64,000 nt of DNA from Neomelitea salexigens DSM 19753 (GTDB lineage: Bacteria; Pseudomonadota; Gammaproteobacteria; Pseudomonadales; Spongiibacteraceae), in contig NZ_AULP01000009.1 of NCBI RefSeq assembly GCF_000422345.1, forward strand, positions 1-64,000, in the 5' to 3' direction. The notes beneath the pieces were generated by a model that searched no databases, was not told the DNA's origin, and was given only the letters and a program-made list of their open reading frames with translations. The stretch's first letter is position 1. The number at the start of each line of letters is the position of its first letter. Below are positions 5,750 to 28,997 of the stretch, in pieces. A program made the position numbers and the translations under genes.

Positions 5750-5766
5750 CATTGCAAAATGCAATG
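5750..5766. promoter_or_regulatory. LuxO-type operator/UAS no. 1
   Basis: Perfect palindrome CATTGCAAAATGCAATG with 7-bp arms and an AAA centre. It matches TTGCA-WWW-TGCAA at 13 of 13 positions. Its centre is 102 bp upstream of the sigma54 promoter at 5860. Confidence 0.8.
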
Positions 5767-5859
5767 AGAGAAGCTCAATAGATTAAGGTTCAGGGTTTTT
5801 TTGCGGCAAGGCCCCGAATTTAGAGCACTTTCGCTGCGCATTGCCCTACCTGTCTCTGC

Positions 5860-5875
5860 TGGCCCGACTATTGCT
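5860..5875 (+). promoter_or_regulatory. Sigma54 (-24/-12) promoter of the flippase gene
   Basis: TGGCCCGACTATTGCT matches TGGCACG-N4-TTGCW at 11 of 12 defined positions. The predicted transcript starts near 5886, about 30 bases before the ATG at 5918. Confidence 0.8.
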
Positions 5876-5917
5876 TTGTCCTTCCCATTATGAAAATCAA
5901 TACATCGGGATGGCGGC

Positions 5918-7165
5918 ATGTCTGCAGGTAATAGCTTTATAAAAAGTCTGAGTTGGCTCGCCACGGGTGAGTTGATGGTTCGTGTATCACGGCTGTTGAC
6001 GACCCTTATCTTGGCTCGCTATCTGAGTCTTCAGGACTACGGTATCGCCGCCCTAGCTGTTGCCTCGGCGGAAATTGTCCGCATCCTCGCCGCCAACGGT
6101 GTTGGTAATCTTATTTTAAAGGCGGAGCAAGCGAAGCTGACGATCGTTACACAAACGGTATTCTGGCTGAACCTGGCCATCGGTGTAGTGATGTTCGGTC
6201 TGCAGTTTTTCGCCGCGCCATTGATCGCAGAGCTATATAATGCGCCGGTACTTGAGTCGCTACTAAAAGCCCTTTCATTTAGCCACCTGATCTACCCCTT
6301 TGCCATGGTGCAGTTCAACCTGCTTCAGCGAGACAGTCGCATGAAAGAGGCGGGGTTGATCATGGGGGCAACGGTAACCCTGGACAATATACTCTGTGCG
6401 GTACTCGCCCTGAGTGGTTTCGGGGTATGGTCAGTTATTTGGCCTAAGTTATTCGCTGCGGCACTCTGGGTAGCGGTAATTAATCGTCGCGTGCCTTGGT
6501 TGCCTCGTTTTCAGTTCTCGTGGAGAGAGTTGCGCAAAGCTCGACGCTACTCCGGTGGAGTTCTACTTGCTGAGTGTTTAAAGAATGGCCGCAATCAATT
6601 CGATATGTTTATTCTCGGCCGGCTCTTGCCCGCTGACATGTTCGGCTTATATGCCTTTGCGCGCAATGCGGGGTTGGGGATTAGTCTGTCGCTTACCAAT
6701 GGCTTCAACACGGCGTTGCTGCCAAAGCTTTGCGATGCTCGCCGCGCCGGCGAAGCATTGGGTAAAAGTTATTTCTCTAGCTTATTAACCGCGATGAAAT
6801 TCATAGCTCCCTTAATACTTTGCCAGGCATTGTTGGCGCCGGTTTATGTTCCCCTGCTGTTTGGTCAACAATGGGCGCCCGCAAGCATGCTGATAGTGGC
6901 GCTGTGTTTGTCGGCGATCCCTCGTATGGTGTTTGAGTCAGCGAGTATGTATTTTCGGGCGGCTGACCAGCTGCGTAGCGAAAATCAAGCTGCCATGGTT
7001 TTCACCATCATGTTTTGCCTGGTGATAGCGGCAGTGAGTGTGCTGGGAGCGCAGGCGGTCGCGCTAGCAATGATTGCCTGCTATGTCGTCGGTGCGGGCC
7101 TGCTATTGATCGTCATCAGCCGCAGCGAGCGAGTGGATGTCAATGCGGAGCTTGCCGCTGGTTGA
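5918..7165 (+). CDS. Wzx-like polysaccharide flippase (MATE/MOP family)
   Basis: A 415-residue polytopic membrane protein with about 12 hydrophobic segments and the N-terminal pattern SLSWLATGELMVRVSRLLTT followed by LARYLSLQDYG, typical of polysaccharide flippases that move undecaprenyl-linked repeat units across the inner membrane. Length fits the family. CGGGA lies 7 bases before the ATG. It is the first EPS gene and has its own UAS and sigma54 promoter. With the Wzy-like and Wza/Wzc-like genes of the leftward operon it indicates a Wzx/Wzy-dependent pathway. Confidence 0.85.
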   Translation: MSAGNSFIKSLSWLATGELMVRVSRLLTTLILARYLSLQDYGIAALAVASAEIVRILAANGVGNLILKAEQAKLTIVTQTVFWLNLAIGVVMFGLQFFAAPLIAELYNAPVLESLLKALSFSHLIYPFAMVQFNLLQRDSRMKEAGLIMGATVTLDNILCAVLALSGFGVWSVIWPKLFAAALWVAVINRRVPWLPRFQFSWRELRKARRYSGGVLLAECLKNGRNQFDMFILGRLLPADMFGLYAFARNAGLGISLSLTNGFNTALLPKLCDARRAGEALGKSYFSSLLTAMKFIAPLILCQALLAPVYVPLLFGQQWAPASMLIVALCLSAIPRMVFESASMYFRAADQLRSENQAAMVFTIMFCLVIAAVSVLGAQAVALAMIACYVVGAGLLLIVISRSERVDVNAELAAG

Positions 7166-7266
7166 GCCGGTCTCTTACCGTGGCAGTCCGTGGCGTTGAT
7201 TGGTACAGCGCCTTCCTTTCAATATTTATCACTCCACATTTTTCCTAAATTAACAAATTAGTTCGC

Positions 7267-7281
7267 ATAGCATTTTGCAAA
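7267..7281. promoter_or_regulatory. LuxO-type operator/UAS no. 2
   Basis: ATAGCA-TTT-TGCAAA matches the 13-base core TTGCA-WWW-TGCAA at 12 positions. Its centre is 92 bp upstream of the sigma54 promoter at 7366. The gap 7166-7418 is AT-rich and holds nothing else recognised. Confidence 0.72.
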
Positions 7282-7365
7282 TCATTACTCCATTGAGCCT
7301 CAGGTCTATTTCTAATAACTTTTAAATTTACTTTAAAAACAATAGGTTAAAATAATTTTTGCTGT

Positions 7366-7381
7366 TGGCATACCGGTTGCA
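7366..7381 (+). promoter_or_regulatory. Sigma54 promoter of the priming sugar transferase
   Basis: TGGCATACCGGTTGCA has an intact TGGCA and TTGCA with correct spacing (10 of 12 positions). It places transcription start near 7392, which rules out the TTG start at 7359 and supports the ATG at 7419. Confidence 0.78.
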
Positions 7382-7418
7382 ATTTCGAGTGAAAGCAAAC
7401 TTCAACGGGATTACCGAC

Positions 7419-8108
7419 ATGCAAGCGATTAAACAACAAGTTAACAGCGTTTTCGCGCTTCTTTTCGCGACATGGTTTTCGTCTATCGATTTAGGCGTTA
7501 AGCAGTTTCTCCGCCGAGGCTATAAGCGCGGATACGATATCGTACTCAGCAGCCTGCTCCTTTTCGCTTTGTCGCCTCTACTGATCGTGACTGCACTGGC
7601 CGTTCGCGTTGAAAGCCGCGGTCCGGTGTTCTTTCGTCAGCAACGAGTGGGTAAAGACGGCAAATTGTTCAATATGATCAAGTTCCGCTCAATGACGACT
7701 GACGCCAAGTTGCATGCCGCCGTTGCAGAGATGGAAAGCGACCGGGACGGGGTTTGCAAGAAATTTGTTAATGACCCTCGGGTGACTCGCACTGGCCGCA
7801 TTATTCGCAAGCTGTCTATTGATGAACTACCTCAGCTGCTTAACGTGCTTCGCGGTGAAATGTCATTGATTGGTCCGCGTCCCGCACTGCAAGAAGAAGT
7901 CGCACAATACAGTGATTATGATCGCCAGCGTCTTGCTGCACTGCCAGGTATTTCAGGCTTGTGGCAGGTATCAGGCCGAGCCGATCTAAGTTTTGAAGAG
8001 CAGATCGACCTGGATCTCCGTTACATCCGCGAGTGCAGCTTGTTTGCTGACCTACGCATTACCCTGCAAACCATTCCGGCGGTGCTGCGCGGCAGTGGCG
8101 CCTACTAA
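7419..8108 (+). CDS. EPS priming sugar-phosphate transferase (bacterial sugar transferase family)
   Basis: A 229-residue polyprenyl-phosphate sugar-1-phosphate transferase of the WcaJ/PglC-type catalytic domain, which begins repeat-unit assembly on the inner membrane. Visible signatures: RGYDIVLSS plus a hydrophobic re-entrant segment (SLLLFALSPLLIVTALAV), PVFFRQQRVGKDGK, IKFRSMTTDA, RKLSIDELPQLLNVLRGEMS with the catalytic Asp-Glu, GPRPAL, and GISGLWQVSGR. It lacks the large N-terminal CoA-binding-like and multi-membrane region of full WcaJ, so it is the short form. The start was chosen after the sigma54 promoter, with CGGGA 8 bases upstream. Confidence 0.9.
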   Translation: MQAIKQQVNSVFALLFATWFSSIDLGVKQFLRRGYKRGYDIVLSSLLLFALSPLLIVTALAVRVESRGPVFFRQQRVGKDGKLFNMIKFRSMTTDAKLHAAVAEMESDRDGVCKKFVNDPRVTRTGRIIRKLSIDELPQLLNVLRGEMSLIGPRPALQEEVAQYSDYDRQRLAALPGISGLWQVSGRADLSFEEQIDLDLRYIRECSLFADLRITLQTIPAVLRGSGAY

Positions 8109-8149
8109 TTAACTCGCAGCGATAAACTCTTTCACTGAAGGTGCTGAAC

Positions 8150-9187: not shown

Positions 9188-9191
9188 TATC

Positions 9192-12739: not shown

Positions 12740-13654
12740 TTAACTTTTCGAACTCATACGTAGTTTCAGTCGCCACTTAAGCAACCTTTTGGGGAGCATC
12801 CAGCACCGTTGGTCTGCCAGTAATTGACGTGCGGCATCTCGATTGTCGGCGAGAATATTGAGTTGCGCGAGGTGGAGTAAATGATTGGCGGTCAGGCGTA
12901 ACATGTCTCGCCGGCGCGGATCGTCGCTATATTTGCTGTGCTGAAACAGCCTTTGACTAAAGGGGCACTCCGTACTCGGAATATTTGCTACGCAGGCGCG
13001 GTTTTCCGCATCTTGCAAGTAGTAGCAATACACTTCATGCGAGTAGGCCATGGGGTAGTGGTAGGCAATGCGTATCCAAAGGTCTTGATCTTCGCCGATA
13101 GGTTCGCCTTCAGGAAAGCCGCCACACTGCTCTAATATCTTGCGGGGAATACAGCAGCTCGATGGCATTATAGGGAGCTCGCCGCGACTGGCGACTGCGA
13201 AAAAGTCGTAGAGGCAGTGGCGTTGTTTGCGTTGCTTGCGATTAAAGCGGGGTTTAACCGGTTTCTTTTCACCATCGGCGAATTGGTGGGCATAGCCGCA
13301 GGAGTAGGCGCCAGCCTCGGGGAAGCGCTTGATCAACTGGCGGATCTCACTGAGAAAAGCGGGATGCCAGAGGTCGTCCCCATCTAGGAAGCAGAGATAA
13401 TGGCCCTTCGCTTCGCGGATTCCTGTATTTCTAGCTTTCGAGACACCGCCATTGGCCTGTGTAACTAAACGTATTTGTGAAGCCTGTTGTTGCAAGTGCT
13501 CGACAACTTCTGGGCCGTTATCTTTAGAGCCATCATCGACAACAATAATTTCGAAGTCCTGCTCATCCTGGGCCAACACCGACTGGATTGTGTCGGCGAT
13601 ATGGCTAGCTTTGTTGTAAAGCGGGATCACTACGGAGAATAGGCATTGATTCAC
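12740..13654 (-). CDS. Family 2 glycosyltransferase (last gene of the wza operon)
   Basis: A 304-residue GT-A enzyme with FSVVIPLYNKASHIADTIQS, FEIIVVDDGSKDNG, GVSKARNTGIREAKG and the metal-binding CFLDGDDLWHPAF. The later GEPIGEDQDLWIRIA has the ED acidic pair typical of inverting GT2 enzymes. It probably adds a sugar during repeat-unit assembly. The start overlaps the pyruvyl transferase stop by 4 bases (ATGA), so it belongs to the five-gene leftward operon. Confidence 0.87.
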   Translation of the reverse strand: MNQCLFSVVIPLYNKASHIADTIQSVLAQDEQDFEIIVVDDGSKDNGPEVVEHLQQQASQIRLVTQANGGVSKARNTGIREAKGHYLCFLDGDDLWHPAFLSEIRQLIKRFPEAGAYSCGYAHQFADGEKKPVKPRFNRKQRKQRHCLYDFFAVASRGELPIMPSSCCIPRKILEQCGGFPEGEPIGEDQDLWIRIAYHYPMAYSHEVYCYYLQDAENRACVANIPSTECPFSQRLFQHSKYSDDPRRRDMLRLTANHLLHLAQLNILADNRDAARQLLADQRCWMLPKRLLKWRLKLRMSSKS

Positions 13655-14748
13655 GGCAGTGGTCTCCAGTTTTTCTGGGCCTTATTACAGGCGTCCTGCA
13701 CGCTGAGCGATGGCGGTGAATAATCTCCTTGCCAAATGTTTGCAAGGGCAGTCTGCAAGACGTCGTTATCGATGTTGCCGCTGTCGGCCGTGTTGCTTGA
13801 GAGCTGGCCGATGTCCCGACACCAGTTGTGACATTTGGGGTGGTAATTCAAATTAAAACACGGTGTTCCCGTAAGGAAGGCAAAGATCGCCGCGTGCAGA
13901 CGCATGGCGACAATGCCGCGTAGTTTGCTAATTTCATGTACGGCGGCGTAGGGGTTGGGGTTATAGGGGATGATTTTCACTGGCAAGCCGCTGAGCATGG
14001 CGGCGAGCTCGGTGTGAACGGCGTTGTCACCAATATCGGGATGACCGTTGAAGTCGATGAGGCGGATTTCAGCGCCGCTTTGCTGGTGGTGTTCGCGCAG
14101 CACCTGCGCAAGTTGTTTGAGCCGACGAGTTTCGAGATCGGCACGACCCTGAAAACGCTCTACCGGGCACAGCGCGACACCGATGGCGTTGTCAGTTGCG
14201 CTGGAGAGAGCGCCTTGGAATGGCTGGTCGAAACGTAGGCCAGGCGCGAGGTCGAACGTAAGCGCAATATTGGCCTGTGGGGCGATACACTGGGCAATTT
14301 CAAAGCTATCTCGATCTCGTAGGCCGGTGAAGTGGCATTCATTAAGAAATTTGGCGCAGGCTTTTTCAGCCGCACTGTCGACAAACGGCCCCAGGCCAAC
14401 GCCGGCTGCGATATGGCGGCGCGAGTTTGCCAGTTTGAGGTAGTGTCGTTTTTGCTGGATATCTTTAGCGGTATGGAATACCGAGCCGCCTCCAATAATG
14501 ATATGACGGCTTCGCAAAGCGCCTAGGTATTTCAGCAGACGGTCCTGCCCCTTAAAGCGTTGCTCGTTACTTTGAACCCCTTGGATCTCTTGGATCTTTC
14601 CGGTGGCGCTGTCTTTGGCCGCGGTAGCGCCGATATTACTTGCGCTGAATAGCTGCTTTGCCCCGGCAGCGGCGGCAGCCATGAGCATATCGTCGCCGGT
14701 ATTTTGCATTCCATAAAAACCGACGAGCAGAGCATCAAAATTTTTCAT
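13651..14748 (-). CDS. Polysaccharide pyruvyl transferase family protein
   Basis: A 365-residue protein of the CsaB/WcaK type. Markers are the N-terminal VGFYGMQNTGDDMLM, the middle GGGSVFHTAKD and FTGLRDRDSF, and the C-terminal MRLHAAIFAFLTGTPCFNLNYHPK, where Arg, His and the NYHPK stretch are typical of the phosphoenolpyruvate site. Members add a ketal-linked pyruvate to a sugar, giving the polymer negative charge. It lies between the Wzy-like and GT2 genes and overlaps both, which supports a role in repeat-unit decoration. An acidic, pyruvylated EPS is therefore expected. Confidence 0.85.
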   Translation of the reverse strand: MKNFDALLVGFYGMQNTGDDMLMAAAAAGAKQLFSASNIGATAAKDSATGKIQEIQGVQSNEQRFKGQDRLLKYLGALRSRHIIIGGGSVFHTAKDIQQKRHYLKLANSRRHIAAGVGLGPFVDSAAEKACAKFLNECHFTGLRDRDSFEIAQCIAPQANIALTFDLAPGLRFDQPFQGALSSATDNAIGVALCPVERFQGRADLETRRLKQLAQVLREHHQQSGAEIRLIDFNGHPDIGDNAVHTELAAMLSGLPVKIIPYNPNPYAAVHEISKLRGIVAMRLHAAIFAFLTGTPCFNLNYHPKCHNWCRDIGQLSSNTADSGNIDNDVLQTALANIWQGDYSPPSLSVQDACNKAQKNWRPLP

Positions 14749-17382: not shown

Positions 17383-17399
17383 TGCTTATAAGTCTCCGC

Positions 17400-18662: not shown

Positions 18663-18709
18663 TGTCTGCATCCTTTGGCGCTGTGCACATGAGTAATTGC
18701 CGTGGAACT

Positions 18710-18725
18710 TGCAGACTTTGTGCCA
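18710..18725 (-). promoter_or_regulatory. Sigma54 promoter of the wza operon
   Basis: On the minus strand TGGCACAAAGTCTGCA: perfect TGGCAC at -24 and TGCA at -12 (10 of 12 positions). Predicted start near 18700, about 38 bases before the chosen wza ATG. Confidence 0.78.
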
Positions 18726-18817: not shown

Positions 18818-18832
18818 TTTGCAAAATGCAAG
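18818..18832. promoter_or_regulatory. LuxO-type operator/UAS no. 3
   Basis: TTTGCAAAATGCAAG contains the full TTGCA-AAA-TGCAA core (13 of 13). Its centre is 100 bp upstream of the wza promoter. In the same gap a GC-rich inverted repeat (GCGGGGCGG 18901-18909 with CCGCCCCGC 18941-18949) lies just after the next gene's stop and may end its transcription, though it has no T-run. Confidence 0.8.
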
Positions 18833-20230: not shown

Positions 20231-20246
20231 CGCAAGCTCTGTGCCA
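20231..20246 (-). promoter_or_regulatory. Sigma54 promoter of the WecG-type gene
   Basis: On the minus strand TGGCACAGAGCTTGCG: perfect TGGCAC and TTGC with correct spacing (10 of 12). The start would be near 20221, about 40 bases before the ATG. Confidence 0.8.
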
Positions 20247-20318: not shown

Positions 20319-20333
20319 TTTGCAATATGCCAA
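20319..20333. promoter_or_regulatory. LuxO-type operator/UAS no. 4
   Basis: TTTGCA-ATA-TGCCAA matches the core at 12 of 13 positions and is centred 80 bp upstream of the WecG-gene promoter. It lies in the divergent gap shared with the histidine kinase gene, so it could act on both; a weak rightward -24/-12-like element is at 20374-20389. Confidence 0.7.
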
Positions 20334-20437
20334 GCATGCTGCATTGCGTTTCCTGTTCTGGCTTGAGTTGACCTGGTCGCTAGATAGCTGTGTTAATACG
20401 GGAGGCGTCGATAGCAGGGAAAACGTTGAAGAAGGTG

Positions 20438-22855
20438 ATGATTAATTCCGCTAAGCAAGATTGGTTGCGCAAATTGAGTTCTCGCCTGGGGGCCAGCATT
20501 GGCGCCCTGCTTATTGGCACCGCGGTCTTGGTGGGAGGAGTTGTGTTGGAAAGCGAGCACGCGCAGACAGTGCGCTCCACCGAGGTAGCAAAAATGCTGC
20601 GGGAGGTGTCGGTACTGAGAGCGAGGGTTGAATCTGCACTTAACGCTAAACTTTATTTGGTCCAAAGCCTTAACGCCTTGGTTCATGCCGAGCCGGAAAT
20701 CAACGACGTAACATTTCAGCAGTTTGCAGAGGAGCTGGGCCAGAATATCCGTTCGATACGTAGCCTGCAGTTAGCTCCAAAAGGGATCGTAAGATATGTG
20801 TGGCCCGTGGAAACCAACAGCAAGGCAATTGGTCACGACCTCCTTGCTGACCCGCGTCGCAAAACAGCGGCAGAGCTGGCGATATCTACTAAAAGTATCT
20901 GGCTTGCGGGGCCGTTTGAGCTGATTCAAGGAGGGCAGGCGCTGGCTGGCCGTTTGCCGATTTTTGTTGCTGAAGATACGGAACAGCGCGAATTCTGGGG
21001 CTTTGGGACGATTCTCCTCGATATAGAGGAGCTGATCGAAGAGGTCGGGTTGGATGACTTTGCGCGTCAACATGACGTCGCCATACGGGGAGCGGACGCG
21101 CTGGGGGAAGTCGGTGCGACGTTCTATGGTGGTGCTGATCTATTCAGCAGCGATGCCATTCTCAGTGAGATCAAGCTACCGGCCGGCAGTTGGCAGATCG
21201 CGAGTATGCCACGCAACGGCTGGTCAACGACATGGCCAACGAAAGCACGTGACCGTTTGCTCTGGATGGTAGCGGCTGGCGTACTATCGGCCTTCGTCTA
21301 TTGGCTGATGCGTTTGCCTAATAGTTTGCGAATGGCAGTGCAGCGTGCGGTAGCGGCGCTGGGGGCCAGTGAATCTCGCTTTCGTGATGCAATTGAAGCG
21401 CTGCCCGATGGCTTTGCTATTTACGATGCTGAGGGAGTGTTAGTGGTTGTCAACGAGCGCCTGCGCGAGCAGTTTTCAGCGGTCAGCTCAACAGTGGGCG
21501 TCGGCAGTACTTATGAGGACTTGCTAAGAACGGGCGTCGAGCTTGGTCAGTATAAGTTTAATAACAAAGAAGAGGTCCAGCACTTTGTAGAGCGCCAACT
21601 GGCACGCCGAAGCCAAGGGGTGTCCTACACTGAAAGGCAGCTGTCTGACGGTCGCTGGCTATTCGTGACAGAAAGTACGATGAGTGACGGTGGGCTGGTT
21701 GTTTTTTATAGAGACGTTACCGAGTTAAAGCAAAAAGAACTGCAACTCATCGAAGAGAAAATCGGCGCTGAGGCCGCCAATAGAGCAAAGAATGAATTCC
21801 TCGCAACGATCAGTCATGAGTTGCGAACGCCGCTTAATGCTATTCTCGGGTTGTTAGAGTTGCTCGGCGACGAGGATGGCTTAACTGCCCAGCAATGCAG
21901 CTTTATCGACACCGCCAATAACTCAGCGAAGCAGTTGCTAAACATCCTGAATGAAATTCTCGATATCAGCAAAATGGAGGCTGGCAAGCTCGAGCTTACT
22001 GAAGAGCCTTTTAATCTTGTTGACACGCTCGATGCGGCGGCGCGGGTAATGAAGGCCAATGCGCAAGCCAAGTCACTAAGATTGAGCGTTGAGCTTGCTC
22101 CTGCTTTGGCCGTGCCCTTATTGGGCGACGCGGGTCGCGTGCGCCAGGTAGTACTCAATCTATTGGGCAATGCGATTAAGTTCAGTAACGAGGGCGAGAT
22201 AGCACTGCGAGCGCGCAGTATTAAAGAGACTGAGGCGTCGATGACGGTGGTGATCGAGGTCAGTGACCAGGGGATCGGTTTTGACAGCGAGCAGGCCGAT
22301 AGCTTATTTGAACCGTTTTCCCAGCTCGATAACCGTTCCATACGTCCCCATGGCGGCACGGGGCTGGGGTTGGCGATTTGCCGCCGAATAATAGAGAAAA
22401 TGGGCGGGGAGATTAGTGCGAACAGTCAGCTTGGCACGGGATCCTGTTTTACTATCGTATTGACGCTGTCAAAGCCTGATACACGCCCATCGGAACCCGC
22501 GCTCAACGTGCTGCTGCTAGAGCCCAGTCTTGCCGGGCGAGCGATCTGTGAAGCCATGTTGAATGATAACCAGGTTGAGTTGCAAAGTGTGAGTAACCGA
22601 GCCGAGTTGGACACGGCATTGGCCCAAACATATTTTGACGTGGTGCTTTTTGATTGTCCTTCTGTGCACGAAGGGCGCGAAACGCTGGAGGCTATTGTCA
22701 GTCGGCACGCCAGTGCGCGGGCAGTGGCTTTGTGTGATGGTGTGAGCGCCATGCCTGAGGGGGCGCATGGCTGGTTGAAAAAGCCTGTAGATAAACGTCG
22801 GCTTTATCATCTCTTGGAGGAATGTCGAAAAACTTTGCTGCAATTACATAGCTAA
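20438..22855 (+). CDS. CHASE-PAS hybrid sensor histidine kinase with degenerate receiver
   Basis: About 805 residues. A first membrane helix (about 15-33), a periplasmic CHASE-like sensor, a second helix (about 270-290), a PAS domain beginning SESRFRDAIEALPDGFAIYD, then HisKA (FLATISHELRTPLNAILG, His about 460), HATPase (NLLGNAIKFSNEGEI, GGTGLGLAICRRI) and a C-terminal receiver-like domain. The receiver keeps VVLFDCPS and KKPV but lacks the usual acidic pair (LLLEPS), so its phosphorylation is doubtful. Starts at GTG 20390, TTG 20426 (CAGGGA 5 bases upstream) and ATG 20438 are in frame; the last two fit better. It probably feeds the LuxO-like relay downstream, an inference from position. Confidence 0.85.
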   Translation: MINSAKQDWLRKLSSRLGASIGALLIGTAVLVGGVVLESEHAQTVRSTEVAKMLREVSVLRARVESALNAKLYLVQSLNALVHAEPEINDVTFQQFAEELGQNIRSIRSLQLAPKGIVRYVWPVETNSKAIGHDLLADPRRKTAAELAISTKSIWLAGPFELIQGGQALAGRLPIFVAEDTEQREFWGFGTILLDIEELIEEVGLDDFARQHDVAIRGADALGEVGATFYGGADLFSSDAILSEIKLPAGSWQIASMPRNGWSTTWPTKARDRLLWMVAAGVLSAFVYWLMRLPNSLRMAVQRAVAALGASESRFRDAIEALPDGFAIYDAEGVLVVVNERLREQFSAVSSTVGVGSTYEDLLRTGVELGQYKFNNKEEVQHFVERQLARRSQGVSYTERQLSDGRWLFVTESTMSDGGLVVFYRDVTELKQKELQLIEEKIGAEAANRAKNEFLATISHELRTPLNAILGLLELLGDEDGLTAQQCSFIDTANNSAKQLLNILNEILDISKMEAGKLELTEEPFNLVDTLDAAARVMKANAQAKSLRLSVELAPALAVPLLGDAGRVRQVVLNLLGNAIKFSNEGEIALRARSIKETEASMTVVIEVSDQGIGFDSEQADSLFEPFSQLDNRSIRPHGGTGLGLAICRRIIEKMGGEISANSQLGTGSCFTIVLTLSKPDTRPSEPALNVLLLEPSLAGRAICEAMLNDNQVELQSVSNRAELDTALAQTYFDVVLFDCPSVHEGRETLEAIVSRHASARAVALCDGVSAMPEGAHGWLKKPVDKRRLYHLLEECRKTLLQLHS

Positions 22856-22860: not shown

Positions 22861-22875
22861 TTCGCAATTTGCATA
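22861..22875. promoter_or_regulatory. LuxO-type operator/UAS no. 5 (weakest copy)
   Basis: TTCGCA-ATT-TGCATA matches the core at 11 of 13 positions, with a WWW centre. It starts 5 bases after the kinase stop and is centred 89 bp upstream of the sigma54 promoter at 22957. Confidence 0.65.
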
Positions 22876-22956: not shown

Positions 22957-22972
22957 TGGCCCATGCTTTGCT
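22957..22972 (+). promoter_or_regulatory. Sigma54 promoter of the EAL gene
   Basis: TGGCCCATGCTTTGCT matches TGGCACG-N4-TTGCW at 10 of 12 positions, with an intact TTGCT. The start is predicted near 22983, about 30 bases before the EAL ATG. Confidence 0.78.
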
Positions 22973-23014: not shown

Positions 23015-23878
23015 ATGTTAACGCCACACTGCACCAATGACGCATGCCAACCGGACGCCGATGCACCGTATCAGAATGCCGGCGCTATCCCAGATTTTTT
23101 AGATGAGGTGATCAATGACGCGCTGGCTGGCGACCATTTTAGAATGGTTTATCAGCCTCAATTCTCCATGACGAGTGGTAAGTTGATGGGCTTTGAAGCA
23201 TTGATTCGCTGCCAGTCGCCCAAATTTGGCGTTATCTCGCCGGCAGAATTTATTCCCCATGCTGAAGAGAATGGCAGCATAGTGGAAATTGGTAATTGGA
23301 CGTTCCAGCAAGCGTTGAGCGACCTCGCGCAAATGCGTAACAAGGGCATGGATTGTTATATGTCAGTTAACTTGTCGCCAGCTCAGTTTGGTGAGGGCGA
23401 TGTGTTCGAAAGAATCATGTTGATGTTAGTTGAGTTGGACTTGCCCGCTTCTGTTTTGAAGCTTGAACTGACGGAAACCGCATTGATTCGCAATGCAAAA
23501 ATGGCCATGCGCACCTTTCAAGCTTTTCAGCGAGAGGGCGCGCAAATATGGCTAGACGATTTTGGTACGGGTTTCGCTTCGCTGAACCTGCTGCGCGAAT
23601 TTAATATTGACGGGCTAAAAATTGACCGCGGTTTTATTGAGGGTTTGCATCGCAGCGATGACGACTTCACGCTGTGCTCTGCGATTATTGCTATGGCGCA
23701 GCGCCTGGGTCTTTTCATCGTCGCCGAAGGTATCGAGAACGAAGAGCAAATGGCGATCCTCGGGCAATTGGGTTGCGATAGCGCTCAAGGTTTCTTACTT
23801 GGCCGTCCTGTGAGCTTGGACGAAACTTTGCAGACGTTTGCTTCTAACCTGGCGACAGGGTCGACAGGTAGATACTGA
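23015..23878 (+). CDS. Stand-alone EAL-domain cyclic-di-GMP phosphodiesterase
   Basis: A 287-residue soluble protein that is almost entirely one EAL domain, which hydrolyses c-di-GMP to pGpG. All usual catalytic and metal-binding motifs are present: GFEALIRC (EAL at 61-63), VNLSPAQF, LELTETAL, LDDFGTGFASL, LKIDRGFI, VAEGIENEEQ and QGFLLGRPV, so it should be active. No sensor, GGDEF or receiver domain is attached; control may be mainly transcriptional through its sigma54 promoter. CGGAGAG precedes the ATG. Its 3' end overlaps the convergent hybrid kinase gene by 35 bases. Confidence 0.92.
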   Translation: MLTPHCTNDACQPDADAPYQNAGAIPDFLDEVINDALAGDHFRMVYQPQFSMTSGKLMGFEALIRCQSPKFGVISPAEFIPHAEENGSIVEIGNWTFQQALSDLAQMRNKGMDCYMSVNLSPAQFGEGDVFERIMLMLVELDLPASVLKLELTETALIRNAKMAMRTFQAFQREGAQIWLDDFGTGFASLNLLREFNIDGLKIDRGFIEGLHRSDDDFTLCSAIIAMAQRLGLFIVAEGIENEEQMAILGQLGCDSAQGFLLGRPVSLDETLQTFASNLATGSTGRY

Positions 23879-26501
23879 TCGCGGCACGTGTCCCCTCGAT
23901 GTAGGCGTTGCTTTTCTGGTGCAGCGCCTTGAGTTGATCTTGATCCAACAGGTCGCAGGCCGTTTCAAGCTGCTGGCAAAAACTCTGCAGTTGTGTGGCG
24001 CCGCAATATCCTGCACTACTTTTGCTTGAATGCGCAGCTTCACGAAGCTGGGCGATGGTGGCATTGCTATAGTCTAGTGAAGAAAGCTGGTCAGATAATT
24101 TATCAATCTCTTCGATGATCATGGCCATGATGGTGACCACTGCGTCGGGAGACGTGTCATCCACAAGCTGCTGGATAATGCCGGCGTCAAGCACTTCATC
24201 AGGCTGGCTTGTGCTGTTATTGAGCGCTTGACTGTCCGTTGCTTGGCCCGAGTTCAGCCACTTATCCAAACTAAGCAGTAGGCCCTGGCGGTCGACAGGC
24301 TTGGCAATAAAGTCGTTCATGCCCGCGTCTAAGCAGCGAGCGATATCACTGGCAAACGCATTTGCCGTCATCGCGATAATAGGAATATTTGCGGTATCGC
24401 TATCGAGCGCCCTAATGCGTTTGCAGGCCTCTATACCATCGAGCTCAGGCATTCGCAGGTCCATTAGTATCAAGCTGTAATTGCCGGTTTCCGCCGCTTC
24501 CACGGCAAGTAAGCCATTGTCAACGATATCGAGTTGATAGCCAGCGCGCTCTAGCATGGTTTTAGCAACCAATTGGTTTGCCTGATTATCTTCGGCGAGC
24601 AACAGCTTGTGTCTCTTTTCGGGGGAGCTTGTTGCTGGGAGTGGCTCACCTTGCGCCGGTGCTGAATTGGGCGACATATTTTTTATTCGCCCTGCCGCCA
24701 GTGTAGAGGGCTTGAGCGGGCGGTGGAGAACGTTGGGGAACCCCGCTGACGATGCTCCGAGTACGCTGTCAGTAGAGAAGGCTGGCGCGTAAATAATGAC
24801 TTTGTCGGGGTCTATTCCTTTTACGGCACATTTGCGAGCGATGACACTGGGTGCCGAACTCGTTTGGCTAATATCGATAATATAGAGTCCCGCTTCGCCG
24901 AAATCGCTAATATCTGAAACGCACTGACAATCGTGTTGCCATAGGGCGGCTTGCTTCGTGATGGCATTTTTAAAAGATGGGTTGCTAGTGGCGACAGCAA
25001 TGGAACAGTCCAACTTTGGTGAGCTGCTTGCAGGCAGAGCTTCTGTTTTAAAGGGCATAACGATACGAAATAGAGAACCCTGGCCAGGCTGACTTGTAAG
25101 ATGGATATAACCGCCAAGTTGCTCGATAAGCTTCTTGCAGATAGCGAGCCCGAGTCCGGTGCCGCCGTAGTCGGTGGTGTCGCTGCTGTCCACTTGACTG
25201 AACTCTTGGAACAATTGGTGTTGCTTGTCTTCGGCGATTCCAATTCCGGTGTCACTCACTTCGAAAATAATGTCTGCGTGGTTTTCGGTGGCAGAGATTT
25301 CGCCGACAACAACGCTTAGGCAAACGCCGCCGTCGTGAGTAAACTTAACGGCATTATCCAGCAGGTTGGTTAAAATTCGGCGCAAAAAACTAATGTCACT
25401 TTGGACGGCACTGGGAAGGTTCGGATCCAGCACTACGGCAATATCGATATTTTTATTACCGGCTCTCACGGTGATCACATCGGCAACCTGCTCGCAGAGG
25501 TCCGCAAGTGTAATCGCCGTGAAATTTGCTTTGAACTCTCCGGCCTCAATCTTTGAGAAGTCGAGTATGTCATCAATGATGCCGAGTAAGCCCGCACCCG
25601 CGCTCATCGAGGTTTCAACCAGAGACTGTTGCTCCGGATTAATGCTTGAGTCTAACAGCAAGTCCATGCAGCCCAGTACGGCGTTCATCGGCGAGCGTAT
25701 TTCGTGACTCATGTGTGCCAAAAAACGAGTTTTTGCTAAGTTACTGGCTTCTGCAATCTCCCTCGCTTTTTTCAATGATGCCTCGTGAGCGCGGCGCTCG
25801 GTGATATCCCGAATGGTAGCTGTAAAGTAGGTTTGCCCATCTATCGGCTGGGTGGGAACCACTGTTAGCTCGCAGGGAAAAATACTTTCATCGCGGCGCA
25901 TGGCCTGAACTTCTACGCGGGTATTGAGCACGGGGCCGGTCAATGTTTCATGAAAATTCCGCATGCCGTCGTGGTGAGCTTGACGAAGTGCCGGCGGGAT
26001 AATGATATCAGCGACATTCTTTCCGAGCACTTCATGGCGTTGGTAGCCAAAAAGTTTTTCCGCAGATTCTCCGAACTCGCAGATCAGGCTGTTTCCATCG
26101 ATGGTGATGATTGCATCTAAGCTTGATTCGTAAAGGGAGCGCGAAATAACTTCTAAGCGTTGGTTTTTTTCGTACAGCTCACTCAAGCCGATGCTGTCTT
26201 TATAAAAAAGTAGTCTACGTGTATCTGGGATACTGCCAGCCGATGTGGTTACCACAACGAACTGGTCGTCGATATTCAGGAAGATGGTCGCCGGCTTTTC
26301 GTCGTGTTTACCGTGGGTGGAGTTTGTAACGTGCTCCGGAATATTTGGGAGTATATCGCGCAGGTATCGACCTTCCTGTTCCGCATTGAGCTCCTTGAAA
26401 TCGTGGGTATTCAGCACAGTAAGCGCTGTTATAAGCCCGCTGGGGTCAAGAATAATTTCACAGAAGGCCTCGATGCCGGCGAGCTGTCGATCCTGAGTCA
26501 T
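23844..26501 (-). CDS. Hybrid sensor histidine kinase (PAS-HisKA-HATPase-REC-Hpt)
   Basis: About 885 residues with no clear membrane helix, so likely a soluble sensor. Order: N-terminal PAS-like region, PAS/PAC (SLDAIITIDGNS ... FGYQRHEVLGKNV ... TATIRDITERR), HisKA (RFLAHMSHEIRSPMNAVLG, His 266), HATPase (DYGGTGLGLAICKKL), a degenerate receiver-like stretch, a true receiver (LLLAEDNQANQ, LILMDLRMPELDG with Asp 681, FIAKPVDRQ) and Hpt (AAHSSKSSAGYCGA, His 824). This is a full internal relay that could pass phosphate to the LuxO-like receiver. ATG 26501 has GAGGA 8 bases upstream; GTG 26516 is less likely. Confidence 0.9.
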   Translation of the reverse strand: MTQDRQLAGIEAFCEIILDPSGLITALTVLNTHDFKELNAEQEGRYLRDILPNIPEHVTNSTHGKHDEKPATIFLNIDDQFVVVTTSAGSIPDTRRLLFYKDSIGLSELYEKNQRLEVISRSLYESSLDAIITIDGNSLICEFGESAEKLFGYQRHEVLGKNVADIIIPPALRQAHHDGMRNFHETLTGPVLNTRVEVQAMRRDESIFPCELTVVPTQPIDGQTYFTATIRDITERRAHEASLKKAREIAEASNLAKTRFLAHMSHEIRSPMNAVLGCMDLLLDSSINPEQQSLVETSMSAGAGLLGIIDDILDFSKIEAGEFKANFTAITLADLCEQVADVITVRAGNKNIDIAVVLDPNLPSAVQSDISFLRRILTNLLDNAVKFTHDGGVCLSVVVGEISATENHADIIFEVSDTGIGIAEDKQHQLFQEFSQVDSSDTTDYGGTGLGLAICKKLIEQLGGYIHLTSQPGQGSLFRIVMPFKTEALPASSSPKLDCSIAVATSNPSFKNAITKQAALWQHDCQCVSDISDFGEAGLYIIDISQTSSAPSVIARKCAVKGIDPDKVIIYAPAFSTDSVLGASSAGFPNVLHRPLKPSTLAAGRIKNMSPNSAPAQGEPLPATSSPEKRHKLLLAEDNQANQLVAKTMLERAGYQLDIVDNGLLAVEAAETGNYSLILMDLRMPELDGIEACKRIRALDSDTANIPIIAMTANAFASDIARCLDAGMNDFIAKPVDRQGLLLSLDKWLNSGQATDSQALNNSTSQPDEVLDAGIIQQLVDDTSPDAVVTIMAMIIEEIDKLSDQLSSLDYSNATIAQLREAAHSSKSSAGYCGATQLQSFCQQLETACDLLDQDQLKALHQKSNAYIEGTRAAISIYLSTLSPG

Positions 26502-26614
26502 ACACAATTTCCTCACTGCAGTAACTATTCAGTATTTTCTATGCTCGCCGTAAGGTCAACGACTTCGCTTTTTAAGCCATCGCGCGACGGAATGGCAGGA
26601 TGACTTTCAATTTG

Positions 26615-26631
26615 ATTTGCAATATGCAAAT
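26615..26631. promoter_or_regulatory. LuxO-type operator/UAS no. 6
   Basis: Perfect palindrome ATTTGCA-ATA-TGCAAAT with 7-bp arms; core match 13 of 13. Its centre is 101 bp upstream of the rightward sigma54 promoter at 26724. I found no sigma54 element for the divergent kinase gene. Confidence 0.8.
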
Positions 26632-26723
26632 ACTGGTCTACTCTTTGGCTATGGCAGGTAGCTAACACGGTCGTATATTCCTAATAGACTGAATTATATA
26701 GCTTTATTTTTGTCCGCTCGTTT

Positions 26724-26739
26724 TGGTTTGTATTTTGCT
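26724..26739 (+). promoter_or_regulatory. Sigma54 promoter of the REC-Hpt/luxO operon
   Basis: TGGTTTGTATTTTGCT keeps the GG and GC dinucleotides and a full TTGCT (9 of 12). It is the weakest of the six -24 boxes. It implies positive autoregulation of the activator. Confidence 0.68.
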
Positions 26740-26797
26740 AACTAACTTGTCGTCCTATTAACTCAATGCTGATGTTATCTTTTCTATGGGGAGTGGT

Positions 26798-27541
26798 ATG
26801 ACGGTTCAAGAATCTTCAAAACGAGATACGGTTTTGCTTGCCGACGATAGCCTTCCCGGCTTGTTGACCGTGAAAGCCATGTTGACGAAATTGGGTTACC
26901 AAGTGAGTACGGTAGCAAATGGCGGGGAGGCGCTGCAGCTCGCAAGCCAACAGGCGTTTGACATTATTTTACTTGATGAACACATGCCAGTCCTACGAGG
27001 CTCCGAAGTGGTACGCCAAATTCGGCAAACCCGCGGCCCAAATGCTTCCACGCGGGTGGTTGCACTGAGTGGTGAAGCATCCGCTAGCGCATTGAGTAAC
27101 ATGCGCGAATCTGGGTTTGATGACTGTATTGAAAAGCCAGTTATAGCCTCTCAGTTAGAAAACCTTATGCGAGGTGATACCGGCGAGCCTGCGTCACCCA
27201 CGTATTCGTCAGCGCTTGAACAGCTCTACGTGGACTTGGGAGAGGAGTCTGCCTCTCGATTACTCGGGCTATTTGTCCAAGAGCTGGCTCAGTTACGGGA
27301 TCGATTACTCACGGCGCGTGACCGCGGAGATGAAACAGAAATACTGGCTGTAGCGCATATTCTCAAGAACTCGGCTGCGATGTACGGAGCAGCTTCGCTT
27401 GCCGAGCTTGCTCTAAGAATCAACGACGAGGGTGCACGCGGTGATGTGTCGCAAGCTGCGCCGCTAATAGAACTTTGTGATAAGGCGGCAGAAGCTGCAC
27501 GGACTCGGCTGCTGCCGAAAGAGGAAAGTGATCATGAGTGA
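26798..27541 (+). CDS. Receiver-Hpt phosphotransfer protein (LuxU-like role)
   Basis: A 247-residue soluble protein with an N-terminal receiver (VLLADDSLPG, Asp 60 in ILLDEHMPVLRG, Lys in IEKPV) and a C-terminal Hpt domain (AVAHILKNSAAMYGA, His 187). It could take phosphate from a kinase on its receiver or Hpt and pass it on. In vibrios the separate Hpt protein LuxU serves LuxO; here an Hpt domain sits next to luxO but carries an extra receiver. ATG 26798 has GGGGAG 4 bases upstream; ATG 26786 is in frame but has no site. The 3' end overlaps luxO by 8 bases. Confidence 0.87.
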   Translation: MTVQESSKRDTVLLADDSLPGLLTVKAMLTKLGYQVSTVANGGEALQLASQQAFDIILLDEHMPVLRGSEVVRQIRQTRGPNASTRVVALSGEASASALSNMRESGFDDCIEKPVIASQLENLMRGDTGEPASPTYSSALEQLYVDLGEESASRLLGLFVQELAQLRDRLLTARDRGDETEILAVAHILKNSAAMYGAASLAELALRINDEGARGDVSQAAPLIELCDKAAEAARTRLLPKEESDHE

Positions 27542-28997
27542 GACGCAAGAGCTGGTCTATGTGGTTGAGGACAGTTTGTCCAGTGGTGCTTTGTACTGCG
27601 GTTATTTGGAAAATGCCGGTTACCGCACGCGCCACTTCGTCGATGGCCATAGCGCGATGCTGGGGGTGAAAGAAGAGCGACCAGATATCATGGTGCAGGA
27701 TGTGAGTCTGCCCGATGTCAGTGGTTTGGAGGTAATGCGCTTTGCTAAAGAGCGCGCGCCCAACTTACCCGTGATCGTGGTGACCGCTAACAGCTCAATT
27801 GATGTCGCCGTCGATGCAATGCGCCTAGGTGGTTTTGACTTCATTGAGAAGCCGTTCTCTAAAGACCGATTGATTACCTCGCTACATGCTGCCAGTGAGC
27901 AGCTGGCCGCTGACCGTACGCAAGACAATGACTCTACCCAGCCTGTAGCGCAGGCCGACGAGCGAACGTCGCCCAAGACAGCTGGGCAGCCTGTGGAGTC
28001 TCACTTTGTCGGTGAATCTGCGGCAATGAAAACGGTATTCCGTTTGCTTAACAGCGCTGCGCGTAGCAAAGCCAGTGTTTTTGTTACGGGGGAGAGCGGC
28101 ACGGGTAAAGAGGTCTGTGCACAGTCTTTACACGATGCAAGCGCCAGGGCTAATGGCCCGTTTGTGGCAATAAACTGTGCGGCTATTCCGGCAGAGCTGT
28201 TTGAGTCAGAAATTTTTGGCCATGAAAAAGGCGCCTTTAGCGGGGCTGTAAGTCAGCGCTTGGGGGCAGCAGAACAGGCGAATGGTGGCACGCTCTTTCT
28301 CGATGAAATCTGCGAGATGGATCTGAGTTTACAGGCAAAATTATTGCGTTTTTTGCAGACGGGCACTTTTACCCGGGTCGGCGGCAATAAACTTCTTAGC
28401 AGCGATATTCGCATTGTGTGCGCAACGAATCGGGACCCGGCCAAAGAAGTGGGGGAAGGTCGCTTTCGCGAAGACTTGTTTTATCGCCTGAACGTGATTC
28501 CGGTGCAATTACCGCCACTGCGCAATCGCGGCAGCGATGTATTGCTGCTTGCCAAACATTTTTTACAGGAAAAGAGCCGGCAAAACGGCAAAAGCTTTTC
28601 CGGCTTTACTGCCGACGCGGAAGCACTTATTAATCAGTATGACTGGCCCGGAAATATTCGCGAGCTGCAAAACGTTATTGAGAATATTGTGGTTATCAAT
28701 GATGCCGAGGAGATTGATCGAGGCATGTTGGCGGCGTTGACCACCGATGGGCAGCCTCCGATCGGCCGCCCAGCCAGTCCGCTCAGTAAAACACGTAGCG
28801 CGGGGGAGCAGAAAAACCCTGTGACCAGCCTTAACGGCGCAGAGGGCATACGCCCCTTATGGCTGGTAGAAAAAGAGGCGATCGAGTCCGCGATAGAGCA
28901 GTGCGAAGGAAATATCCCCTTGGCGGCCGCGTGCTTGGGCGTTAGTGCCTCAACGATATACCGAAAAATAAAGGGCTGGGAAGTGGGCGAGGTGTGA
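27534..28997 (+). CDS. luxO: LuxO-like sigma54-dependent response regulator
   Basis: A 487-residue activator: receiver (VYVVEDSLSSGALYCGYL, Asp 56 in MVQDVSLPDVSG, Thr 84, Lys 106), AAA+ domain (Walker A GESGTGKE 186-193, sigma54-contact loop GAFSGA 233-238, GGTLFLDEICEMD, FREDLFYRLNVIP, WPGNIRELQNV) and a Fis-type HTH at the C-terminus. The receiver start and the segment from RLGAAEQANGGTLFLDE to ATNRDP closely resemble Vibrio LuxO as I remember it. The loop has Ser where GAFTGA is standard. LuxO binds TTGCA-WWW-TGCAA, the palindrome found six times nearby. ATG 27534 lies within the end of the REC-Hpt gene. Confidence 0.9.
   Translation: MSETQELVYVVEDSLSSGALYCGYLENAGYRTRHFVDGHSAMLGVKEERPDIMVQDVSLPDVSGLEVMRFAKERAPNLPVIVVTANSSIDVAVDAMRLGGFDFIEKPFSKDRLITSLHAASEQLAADRTQDNDSTQPVAQADERTSPKTAGQPVESHFVGESAAMKTVFRLLNSAARSKASVFVTGESGTGKEVCAQSLHDASARANGPFVAINCAAIPAELFESEIFGHEKGAFSGAVSQRLGAAEQANGGTLFLDEICEMDLSLQAKLLRFLQTGTFTRVGGNKLLSSDIRIVCATNRDPAKEVGEGRFREDLFYRLNVIPVQLPPLRNRGSDVLLLAKHFLQEKSRQNGKSFSGFTADAEALINQYDWPGNIRELQNVIENIVVINDAEEIDRGMLAALTTDGQPPIGRPASPLSKTRSAGEQKNPVTSLNGAEGIRPLWLVEKEAIESAIEQCEGNIPLAAACLGVSASTIYRKIKGWEVGEV

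What the first reader, a model, noticed from the sequence alone, without database searches (positions are those of the whole stretch)
5750..28997. Six LuxO-type operators paired with sigma54 promoters form a local EPS regulon
Seen: palindromes matching TTGCA-WWW-TGCAA at 5758, 7274, 18825, 20326, 22868 and 26623 (centres), with 13, 12, 13, 12, 11 and 13 of 13 matches. All are intergenic and all have an A/T-only centre. Each is followed on the correct strand by a -24/-12 promoter (5860, 7366, 18725, 20246, 22957, 26724). Known: Vibrio LuxO binds this operator upstream of sigma54-dependent qrr genes. Inferred: the LuxO-like protein at 27534 directly drives the flippase, priming transferase, wza operon, WecG gene, EAL gene and its own operon. 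Direct LuxO control of a whole EPS locus by this operator is, to my knowledge, not described.
Basis: partly seen in the sequence, partly recalled or inferred. Interest (0 to 1): 0.92.

Follow-up and report, generated by a model that had tools for sequence, protein, structure and literature searches.

The report
LuxO-like switch for slime and pili
In an unnamed bacterium, a relative of the quorum-sensing regulator LuxO appears to switch on, through one repeated DNA tag placed before many special promoters, a whole set of genes for a sugar coat and surface pili, and in related species the tag occurs almost only where the regulator does.

Summary
Six pairs were seen; simulation gives 0.05. The locus is larger than the window: contig C7 ends with the window's first 3907 bases and carries three more pairs, before a secretin operon and two pilin genes of a Tad-like pilus. 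In the genus, 7 of 18 genomes hold the LuxO-like protein; only these hold the marker genes of this EPS and/or Tad module, and they hold 29 exact operators (27 at the locus) against 3 in the other 11. Pairs recur before orthologous genes. The protein keeps 10 of 11 residues that LuxO needs for DNA binding. It is below the LuxO model's cut-off and forms its own clade; a Qrr search was uninformative. Closest precedent: SypG of Vibrio fischeri, which drives four sigma54 promoters of an EPS locus. So: a new variant of a known kind, with the LuxO operator, wired to EPS, Tad pili and itself. The EAL site is weakest. No binding or expression data exist.

The parts
5752..5764 (+). LuxO-type operator before wzx-like flippase gene
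   Evidence: TTGCAAAATGCAA, exact; also before wzx in G006, G008, G013, not in G011
5860..5875 (+). -24/-12 promoter TGGCCCGACTATTGCT
5918..7165 (+). flippase (Polysacc_synt_3, Wzx-like)
7268..7280 (+). operator before priming glycosyltransferase gene
   Evidence: TAGCATTTTGCAA, 1 mismatch; such a site in 5 of 5 genomes with the EPS module, spacing 84-86
7366..7381 (+). -24/-12 promoter TGGCATACCGGTTGCA
7419..8108 (+). priming sugar-phosphate transferase (Bac_transf); the in-frame ATG at 7419 is more likely the start than the TTG at 7359, which lies before the promoter
   Evidence: start is inference
18819..18831 (-). operator before wza operon
   Evidence: exact; 5 of 5 genomes with the EPS module
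   Evidence: TTGCAGAATGCCT, 2 mismatches, 26 bases from the first; doublets 26-28 bases apart in 5 of 5
18710..18725 (-). -24/-12 promoter TGGCACAAAGTCTGCA
12740..18671 (-). wza operon: Wza-like export (17400-18671), very weak Wzz/GNVR-like match (15976-17382), Wzy-like (14735-16036), pyruvyl transferase (13651-14748), GT2 (12740-13654)
   Evidence: that it is one operon is inference
20320..20332 (-). operator before WecG-type gene
   Evidence: TTGCAATATGCCA, 1 mismatch; 5 of 5 genomes with the EPS module
20231..20246 (-). -24/-12 promoter TGGCACAGAGCTTGCG
18966..20180 (-). WecG/TagA-type glycosyltransferase with a partial Bac_transf match
22862..22874 (+). operator before EAL gene (weakest of the six)
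   Evidence: TCGCAATTTGCAT, 2 mismatches; not seen before EAL genes of G001, G002, G011
22957..22972 (+). -24/-12 promoter TGGCCCATGCTTTGCT
23015..23878 (+). EAL-domain protein (predicted c-di-GMP phosphodiesterase)
26617..26629 (+). operator before the regulator's own operon
   Evidence: exact; operator before this operon in 7 of 7 genomes, promoter (score 23-25) in 6 of 7
26724..26739 (+). -24/-12 promoter TGGTTTGTATTTTGCT
26786..27541 (+). receiver-Hpt protein (phosphorelay), LuxU-like in its Hpt domain only
27534..28997 (+). LuxO-like sigma54 enhancer-binding response regulator (receiver, AAA+, Fis-type HTH)
20390..22855 (+). CHASE-PAS histidine kinase, possible input
   Evidence: role is inference
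23844..26516 (-). hybrid histidine kinase PAS-HisKA-HATPase-receiver-Hpt, possible input
   Evidence: role is inference
205..5734 (+). Tad/Flp-like pilus genes: CpaB-like (205-954), TadA ATPase (982-2322), two T2SSF proteins (2309-3199, 3196-4026), two proteins that look pilin-like by eye (4031-5293, 5375-5734); continues on contig C7 with secretin, TPR protein and pilin-like genes

Best explanation
The protein at 27534-28997 is a LuxO/SypG-type response regulator. When a phosphorelay (the hybrid kinase at 23844, the CHASE kinase at 20390 and the receiver-Hpt protein at 26786 are the candidates) phosphorylates it, it binds as oligomers to the palindromic operator GNW-TTGCA-WWW-TGCAA-WNC and, about 75-130 bases downstream, drives open-complex formation by sigma54 RNA polymerase. 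One regulator thereby switches on together the EPS assembly genes (wzx, priming transferase, wza-wzy operon, wecG), the Tad-like pilus genes (secretin operon, pilins) and its own operon (positive feedback). Shown here: the sites, their pairing with sigma54 promoters, their recurrence before orthologous genes, co-occurrence with the regulator, and conservation of the DNA-binding residues. Inferred: binding, activation, the kinases, the signal and the positive feedback.
For: Six of six operators in the window have a sigma54 promoter; simulation gives 0.05 pairs. Three more pairs lie on the overlapping contig C7. With correct spacing (TGG-N9-TGC) the composite searches return all nine locus pairs plus 26 rows elsewhere (backward control 3 in all); with the spacing off by one base they return 22 places, none at the locus (an unplanned control). 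Regulator orthologs (66-72% identity) in 6 of 17 other genus genomes; exact operators 7, 6, 5, 2, 3, 3, 3 in the seven genomes with it, against 0 in 8 and 1 in 3 of the eleven without; the marker genes of the EPS module (Wzy) and of this Tad module (TadA at 70% or more) only in those seven. 37 operator/promoter pairs, nearly all before orthologous genes; outside the 13 bases used for picking, a G at -3 in 33 of 37 and an A at +13 in 30 of 37 (own genome: G at -3 in 9 of 9). 10 of 11 residues needed for DNA binding by LuxO are identical, the eleventh is L to I. Of 80 named loci, pairs are found at 5 of the eleven best matches (L095-L105, E 4e-108 or better) and at 0 of the other 69.
Against: No binding, transcript or mutant data. 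Related genomes are not independent, so counts across them overstate the evidence. Other enhancer-binding proteins exist in this genome (16 matches scored in G000) and were not excluded directly. The palindrome at up to 2 mismatches alone is at chance. Outside the locus the composite is no commoner than the off-by-one control (26 rows against 22). The EAL site is not conserved; the wzx site is missing in G011; the regulator operon of G008 has an operator but no good -24/-12 element. Six of the eleven best-matching named loci have no pair in the stretch held. All 18 genus genomes have a more distant TadA (41-45%) elsewhere, so other Tad-type loci exist without this control. The AAA+ domain has GAFSGA in place of GAFTGA in all seven genus members. 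The search for orthologous promoters used the same motif that it is taken to support.
Confidence: 0.82

Rival explanations
1. The sigma54 promoters are real but another enhancer-binding protein of the NtrC family, not the LuxO-like one, binds the palindromes.
For: The genome has further proteins of this kind (16 matches scored in G000); a palindrome alone does not name its binder.
Against: Operators occur where the LuxO-like gene occurs (7 of 7 genomes) and almost not elsewhere (3 exact sites in 11 genomes), although those genomes have other such proteins. The operator lies before the regulator's own operon in 7 of 7. The five NtrC-like proteins with a readable HTH (G094n, G061n, G074n, G007n, L114) keep only 4-5 of the 11 LuxO contact residues.
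Confidence: 0.08
2. It is simply SypG: the same regulator and the same regulon as the syp locus of Vibrio fischeri. (Overlaps with the main explanation in mechanism.)
For: Same logic: LuxO relative inside an EPS locus, several sigma54 promoters with enhancer sites, phosphorelay genes. The tree does not resolve the order of the groups, so nearness to SypG is not excluded.
Against: In two Vibrio EPS loci with a protein that I take for SypG-like by its setting (L098, L099) the palindromes are TTCTCA-WWW-TGAGAA, not TTGCA-WWW-TGCAA. In the window TTCTCA-N3-TGAGAA has five 2-mismatch matches (1.82 expected; 4 of 100 shuffles reach five), only one of them near the six promoters, inside the wzx leader downstream of the promoter. 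L098 keeps 7 of 11 LuxO contact residues, the window protein 10. A Tad-like pilus is part of the regulon here.
Confidence: 0.12
3. The palindromes are a composition or repeat artefact of AT-rich intergenic DNA; the sigma54 elements are chance.
For: At up to 2 mismatches the palindrome is at chance frequency.
Against: 6 of 6 pairs against 0.05 expected; the off-by-one control finds none at the locus; recurrence in six other genomes and conserved flanks not used in picking.
Confidence: 0.01

Closest known systems
SypG / syp locus of Vibrio fischeri
   Same: LuxO-like enhancer-binding response regulator encoded within an EPS locus; four operons, each with a sigma54 promoter and regulator sites (PMC10804989, passages); SypG is the class I bEBP of that genome most identical to LuxO (PMC10162802 section 7).
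   Different: Operator half-site is TTGCA here and TTCTCA in the two SypG-like Vibrio loci I looked at (no V. fischeri locus was fetched); here the regulator's own operon and a Tad-like pilus are included; a receiver-Hpt protein precedes the regulator; probably not Vibrionaceae (inferred: 11 of 18 congeners lack a LuxO-like protein).
LuxO and the qrr promoters of Vibrionaceae
   Same: Same operator, TTGCA-N3-TGCAA, upstream of sigma54 promoters (consensus quoted in PMC3352281, passages); 10 of 11 DNA-binding residues identical; best sequence match among solved structures is LuxO 5ep0; in L096 and L104 such a site lies just upstream of luxO with a promoter that reads away from it.
   Different: Targets are structural genes, not small RNAs; below the LuxO model's cut-off (548.6 against 800 bits); own clade in the tree; regulator sits in its target locus.
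PEP-CTERM response regulator PrsR (TIGR02915) and other sigma54 control of EPS (BerB, NtrC in Burkholderia)
   Same: Sigma54 enhancer-binding proteins tied to EPS; the PrsR model matches the window protein. The Burkholderia papers were seen in a listing only.
   Different: 366.1 bits against a cut-off of 502.6, well under the LuxO match; none of the 19 proteins scanned with NCBIfam reaches the cut-off of a PEP-CTERM/XrtA model, which is not a full search.
Pseudoalteromonas sp. 0303 Tad locus (L095)
   Same: 56% identical regulator, in the same clade (98/97), beside Tad genes and an EAL gene, with TTGCATTTTGCAA and a -24/-12 element (TGGCATGCTTTTAGCT) before the pilin gene.
   Different: No match to the EPS proteins in the 11.6 kb held; other family. 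A luxO has been named in Pseudoalteromonas before as a quorum-sensing gene (PMC6275029, passages); whether it is this gene I did not test.

Membership tests
LuxO (NCBIfam NF041946) | Receiver, sigma54 AAA+ and Fis-type HTH domains | tested here: met
LuxO (NCBIfam NF041946) | Score above the curated cut-off of 800 bits | tested here: not met
   548.6 bits, though the best of the NCBIfam models
LuxO (NCBIfam NF041946) | Groups with Vibrionaceae LuxO in a tree | tested here: inconclusive
   L096 and L104 pair at 100/100; window clade with L095 apart at 98/97; order among the groups unresolved
LuxO (NCBIfam NF041946) | Recognises TTGCA-N3-TGCAA | tested here: inconclusive
   Sites present and paired with sigma54 promoters, contact residues conserved; binding itself not testable
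LuxO (NCBIfam NF041946) | LuxU next to the gene | tested here: not met
   A receiver-Hpt protein instead; its Hpt part scores 41.6 bits against LuxU's cut-off of 140
LuxO (NCBIfam NF041946) | Drives qrr small RNA genes | tested here: inconclusive
   No Qrr at E 0.001 in the genome, no Rfam family in the window, but the Qrr control set rang nowhere
SypG / syp | LuxO-like bEBP in an EPS locus with several sigma54 promoters and enhancer sites | tested here: met
SypG / syp | SypG-type enhancer (TTCTCA half-site; consensus recalled, the half-site seen in L098/L099) | tested here: not met
   No exact or 1-mismatch TTCTCA-N3-TGAGAA in the window; form in Vibrio loci
SypG / syp | syp gene content and order (sypA-R) | not tested
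   no V. fischeri syp locus was fetched
Tad/Flp pilus locus | Secretin, CpaB, TadA ATPase, TadB/C, TPR protein, Flp-type pilins | tested here: inconclusive
   TadA-like (343.3 of 373.15 bits), T2SSF pair, secretin and TPR found; CpaB weak (40.7 of 71 bits); pilin-like proteins match no model; a prepilin peptidase or TadZ was not looked for beyond these proteins

The most novel reading that the evidence does not exclude
LuxO-box control is a portable wiring kit for surface structures that is much broader than quorum sensing: one regulator type with one operator code has been attached, in different lineages, to EPS loci, Tad-like pili and a chaperone-usher-like fimbria (G068, L086/L092), and the qrr/quorum-sensing use in vibrios is one special case of it. 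The direction of evolution is not shown by my tree.
Probability: 0.35. Interest if true: 0.78.

Novelty: new variant of a known kind. Interest (0 to 1): 0.63.

Why it matters
LuxO is known as the activator of quorum regulatory RNAs. Here the same operator code sits directly before matrix and pilus genes, with the regulator in the locus. If true, attachment organelles and matrix are switched on as a set by one phosphorelay, without need of small RNAs, and the operator gives a simple way to find such regulons in other genomes. The genus gives a natural experiment: regulator with EPS only, with the pilus only, or with both. It also bears on how LuxO-like proteins came to read different operators (TTGCA against TTCTCA) with few changes in the recognition helix.

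Tried and rejected
Chance: rejected for the set, left open for the EAL site. Composite searches with the -24/-12 spacing off by one were a mistake of mine and serve as a control. Genome-wide composite hits outside the locus: searches list 26 such rows; all were looked at in 21 fetched neighbourhoods (L035-L055), in L002 and, for C9:34584, in the window; L056 and L057 come from the off-by-one lists. Of the 23 loci L035-L057, 10 gave a core palindrome with a promoter score of 23 or more at 50-165 bases; 9 of these 10 lie in stop-to-stop frames of 128-654 residues on one strand or the other, and one (L039, C2:130461) does not, but has poor outer operator bases. C9:34584 was not scored there; it gave no pair by the rule. 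Qrr search: none found, control uninformative. Plasmid search with the regulator: 859 records at E 1e-60 or better, all under 60% identity, best 49% in an Aeromonas record of chromosome size; nothing of use. Literature: no paper that describes LuxO-box control of an EPS or Tad locus turned up in searches; I judged by listings and by passages of some papers, the library holds open-licence papers only, and the key SypG paper (Ray 2013) is not held, so this is not proof of absence. Passages of PMC12195369, PMC4263508, PMC12369376 and PMC8919034 added nothing decisive. The GAFSGA/GAFTGA meaning was not followed up. No structure prediction was run.

Full report
What was claimed and what is there. 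A direct search finds all six at the stated places with the stated numbers of matches, and the ORF list shows that all are between genes. The promoters are at 5860, 7366, 18725 (minus), 20246 (minus), 22957 and 26724, each with GG and GC ten bases apart.

Is it more than chance? The palindrome alone, at up to two mismatches, is not: ten matches with 8.04 expected. The pairing is. With an operator rule of one mismatch to TYGCAWWWTGCRA (GCA and TGC intact) and a promoter score of 24 or more at 55-135 bases, the window has six operators and six pairs; 150 second-order Markov simulations give on average 0.73 operators and 0.05 pairs, never more than one pair. The promoter score is my own weighting of TGGCACG-N4-TTGCW, and the operator rule was set after I had seen the relatives' sites. 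In the 3.44 Mb genome the exact palindrome TTGCANNNTGCAA has nine places; with an A/T-only centre it has seven, six of them at this locus. Composite searches with correct spacing return all nine locus pairs and 26 rows elsewhere (the built-in backward control gives 3 in all); with the spacing one base off they return 22 places and none at the locus. Outside the locus the composite is thus no commoner than its control. Of 23 fetched neighbourhoods (L035-L057), ten gave a pair by a laxer score and nine of those ten lie in open frames of 128-654 residues.

The locus is larger than the window. The last 3907 bases of contig C7 are identical to the first 3907 of the window, so I take the two contigs to join. 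On C7 lie three more exact operators, each with a sigma54 promoter: before a small ORF, a secretin gene and a TPR protein gene, and before two nearly identical pilin-like genes with duplicated leaders. The window itself begins with a CpaB-like protein, a TadA-type ATPase and two T2SSF proteins. The regulon therefore covers a Tad-like pilus and an EPS locus. The pilus call rests on TadA, the secretin and the T2SSF pair; CpaB is below its cut-off, the pilin-like proteins match no model, and a prepilin peptidase was not looked for.

The EPS locus. A Wzx-like flippase, a priming transferase, glycosyltransferases, a minus-strand gene row with Wza-like, Wzy-like, pyruvyl-transferase and glycosyltransferase genes, and a WecG-type gene. 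A CHASE histidine kinase, an EAL protein and a hybrid kinase lie next to the regulator operon of a receiver-Hpt protein and the LuxO-like protein.

Natural experiment in the genus. Of 17 other genomes of the genus, six have an ortholog of the regulator at 66-72% identity; in the other eleven the best match has E about 1e-82 to 1e-88, at 38-40% identity where the row is shown (the rows of G003 and G016 are not). The seven genomes with it have 7, 6, 5, 2, 3, 3 and 3 exact operators (29), of which 27 lie at the locus (one of G002's two is counted by its gene neighbours at a contig end); of the eleven without it eight have none and three have one. An ortholog of the EPS polymerase (84-88%) is found in five of 18 genomes, own included, and of this TadA (70% or more) in four of 18; every one of these has the regulator, and every genome with the regulator has one or both. 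All 18 also have a more distant TadA at 41-45% elsewhere, outside this locus. By these markers and, G006, G008 and G013 have EPS only; G001 and G002 the pilus only; G000 and G011 both. If the genomes were independent, which they are not, 7 of 7 against 0 of 11 has a chance of 3 in 100,000.

The promoters recur. Operator/promoter pairs stand before the priming transferase in 5 of 5 genomes with the EPS module (spacing 84-86), before wza in 5 of 5, always as a doublet of operators 26-28 bases apart, before wecG in 5 of 5, before wzx in 4 of 5 (not G011), before the secretin operon in 4 of 4 and pilin genes in 3 of 3 that could be tested (G002's contig ends there), and before cpaB in G011 and G002. 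The regulator's operon has an operator in 7 of 7 and a promoter, of lower score (23-25), in 6 of 7 (G008 lacks it). Before EAL genes only the window has one; G001, G002 and G011 do not. I listed 37 pairs by hand, one operator per promoter. Left out were the second operators of doublets and other near neighbours, the G008 regulator site (no promoter), one exact G008 operator (joined-locus position 31256) with a promoter 63 bases off before a gene I did not identify, and a G002 site at a contig end. In the 37, all centres are A/T-only, and bases outside the 13 used for picking are conserved: G at -3 in 33 of 37, A at +13 in 30 of 37, C at +15 in 20 of 37; in the own genome G at -3 in 9 of 9. The operator looks like a 19-base palindrome GNW-TTGCA-WWW-TGCAA-WNC, better kept on the side away from the promoter.

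The regulator. It scores 548.6 bits against the LuxO model, the best of the NCBIfam models but below that model's cut-off of 800. The best sequence match among solved structures is LuxO, 5ep0. An alanine scan of V. cholerae LuxO found eleven residues of the HTH needed for DNA binding (PMC11407668, passages and first part of section 16). Ten of the eleven are identical in the window protein and the eleventh is L to I; a SypG-like protein (L098) has 7 and the NtrC-like proteins with a readable stretch 4-5 (counted by eye from the printed stretches). In a 28-row tree the seven genus proteins and one from Pseudoalteromonas sp. 0303 form a clade (98/97), the LuxO of L096 and L104 another (100/100), both within a LuxO-like group against NtrC-like proteins (100/100); the order within is unresolved.

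Beyond the genus. L095 is a Pseudoalteromonas Tad locus with an exact operator before its pilin gene. In L096 and L104 (Vibrio, Photobacterium) the site lies just upstream of luxO with a promoter reading away from it, as one would expect for qrr1. In other families of the order, EPS genes of the same kind stand beside LuxO-like genes with palindromes (G077, G068), and in G068 two doublets of exact palindromes, 174 and 185 bases before sigma54 elements, stand before small secreted proteins (one of four with a weak DUF4402 match), a weakly PapD-like chaperone and an 888-residue protein of usher size; calling it a chaperone-usher fimbria is my inference.

Comparison with what is known. The nearest precedent is SypG: the syp locus has four operons, each with a sigma54 promoter and SypG sites (PMC10804989, passages), and SypG is the class I enhancer-binding protein of that genome most identical to LuxO and can activate qrr1, while active LuxO does not activate syp (PMC10162802, section 7). 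In two Vibrio EPS loci with a protein that I take for SypG-like from its setting (L098, L099) there are palindromes TTCTCA-WWW-TGAGAA, two in each with a -24/-12 element 58-70 bases downstream. The window has no exact or one-mismatch match of that type; five two-mismatch matches (1.82 expected) include one in the wzx leader. So the present system works like SypG/syp but with the LuxO operator, for which TTGCA-N3-TGCAA is quoted in PMC3352281 (passages). That sigma54 often controls outer structures has been argued before (PMC3162934, abstract and passages). I found no paper describing LuxO-box control of an EPS or pilus locus, within an open-licence library.

Mechanism, with what is shown and inferred. 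Shown: sites, promoters, spacing, recurrence, co-occurrence, contact residues. Inferred: phosphorylation through the nearby kinases and the receiver-Hpt protein; binding; activation; positive feedback through the regulator's own promoter. The signal is unknown. The sensors are less conserved (40-48% for the two kinases and the receiver-Hpt protein; 32% for the hybrid-kinase match of G001) than the polymerase (84-88%), which suggests that the input changes faster than the output (the reading is mine).

Verdict. The finding is real and its main inference well supported by comparison, though not tested at the bench. It is a new variant of a known kind: SypG-like logic with the LuxO operator, wired to EPS, a Tad-like pilus and itself, probably outside the vibrios.

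Noticed in passing
window 1-3907 and L001 12383-16289 (contig C7 end): The window's first 3907 bases are identical to the end of another contig; the assembly broke inside the pilus locus, next to duplicated pilin genes.
   Followed up: yes
L001 10045-10663 and 11890-12505: Two nearly identical pilin-like genes share a nearly identical leader and promoter; G011 has seven matches to this protein in a row.
   Followed up: partly
L001 11796-11830: An exact operator lies within an inverted repeat followed by a T run, so terminator and operator appear to share the same bases.
   Followed up: no
L001 10774-11703: Pilin-like protein with a long repetitive tail (GGT and TDPVT units).
   Followed up: no
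L002 4935-4947 (contig C8): The only exact A/T-centre operator of the genome outside the locus overlaps the -12 element of a strong sigma54 promoter (TGGCACCGGCTTTGCA) before a Porin_O_P gene, with a weaker core 137 bases upstream; relatives of this porin lie next to the regulator in G011 and G002, where I saw no such site.
   Followed up: partly
window 27534-28997: GAFSGA in place of GAFTGA in the sigma54-contacting loop, in all seven genus members aligned.
   Followed up: no
L086 18913-19660 and L092 100-5489 (G068): Two doublets of exact LuxO-type palindromes before small secreted proteins, a weakly PapD-like chaperone and an usher-sized protein, beside a LuxO-like gene.
   Followed up: partly
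L101 11907-11968: Rhizobiaceae-group MAG: two palindromes with sigma54 elements on both sides, one reading towards a mannose-1-phosphate guanylyltransferase-type gene, near a LuxO-like gene.
   Followed up: partly
L039 1462 (contig C2 near 130461): Strong sigma54 element TGGCATGTCCTTTGCT upstream of a 197-residue protein that looks isochorismatase-like (recalled, not searched), near a core palindrome with poor outer bases.
   Followed up: partly
L098 and L099: Vibrio EPS loci with a SypG-like protein have TTCTCA-WWW-TGAGAA palindromes; in L098 a small Hpt protein gene lies next to the regulator.
   Followed up: partly
G008, joined L063-L065 at 31256: Exact operator with a sigma54 promoter 63 bases off, before a gene not identified; a possible further member of the regulon.
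   Followed up: no
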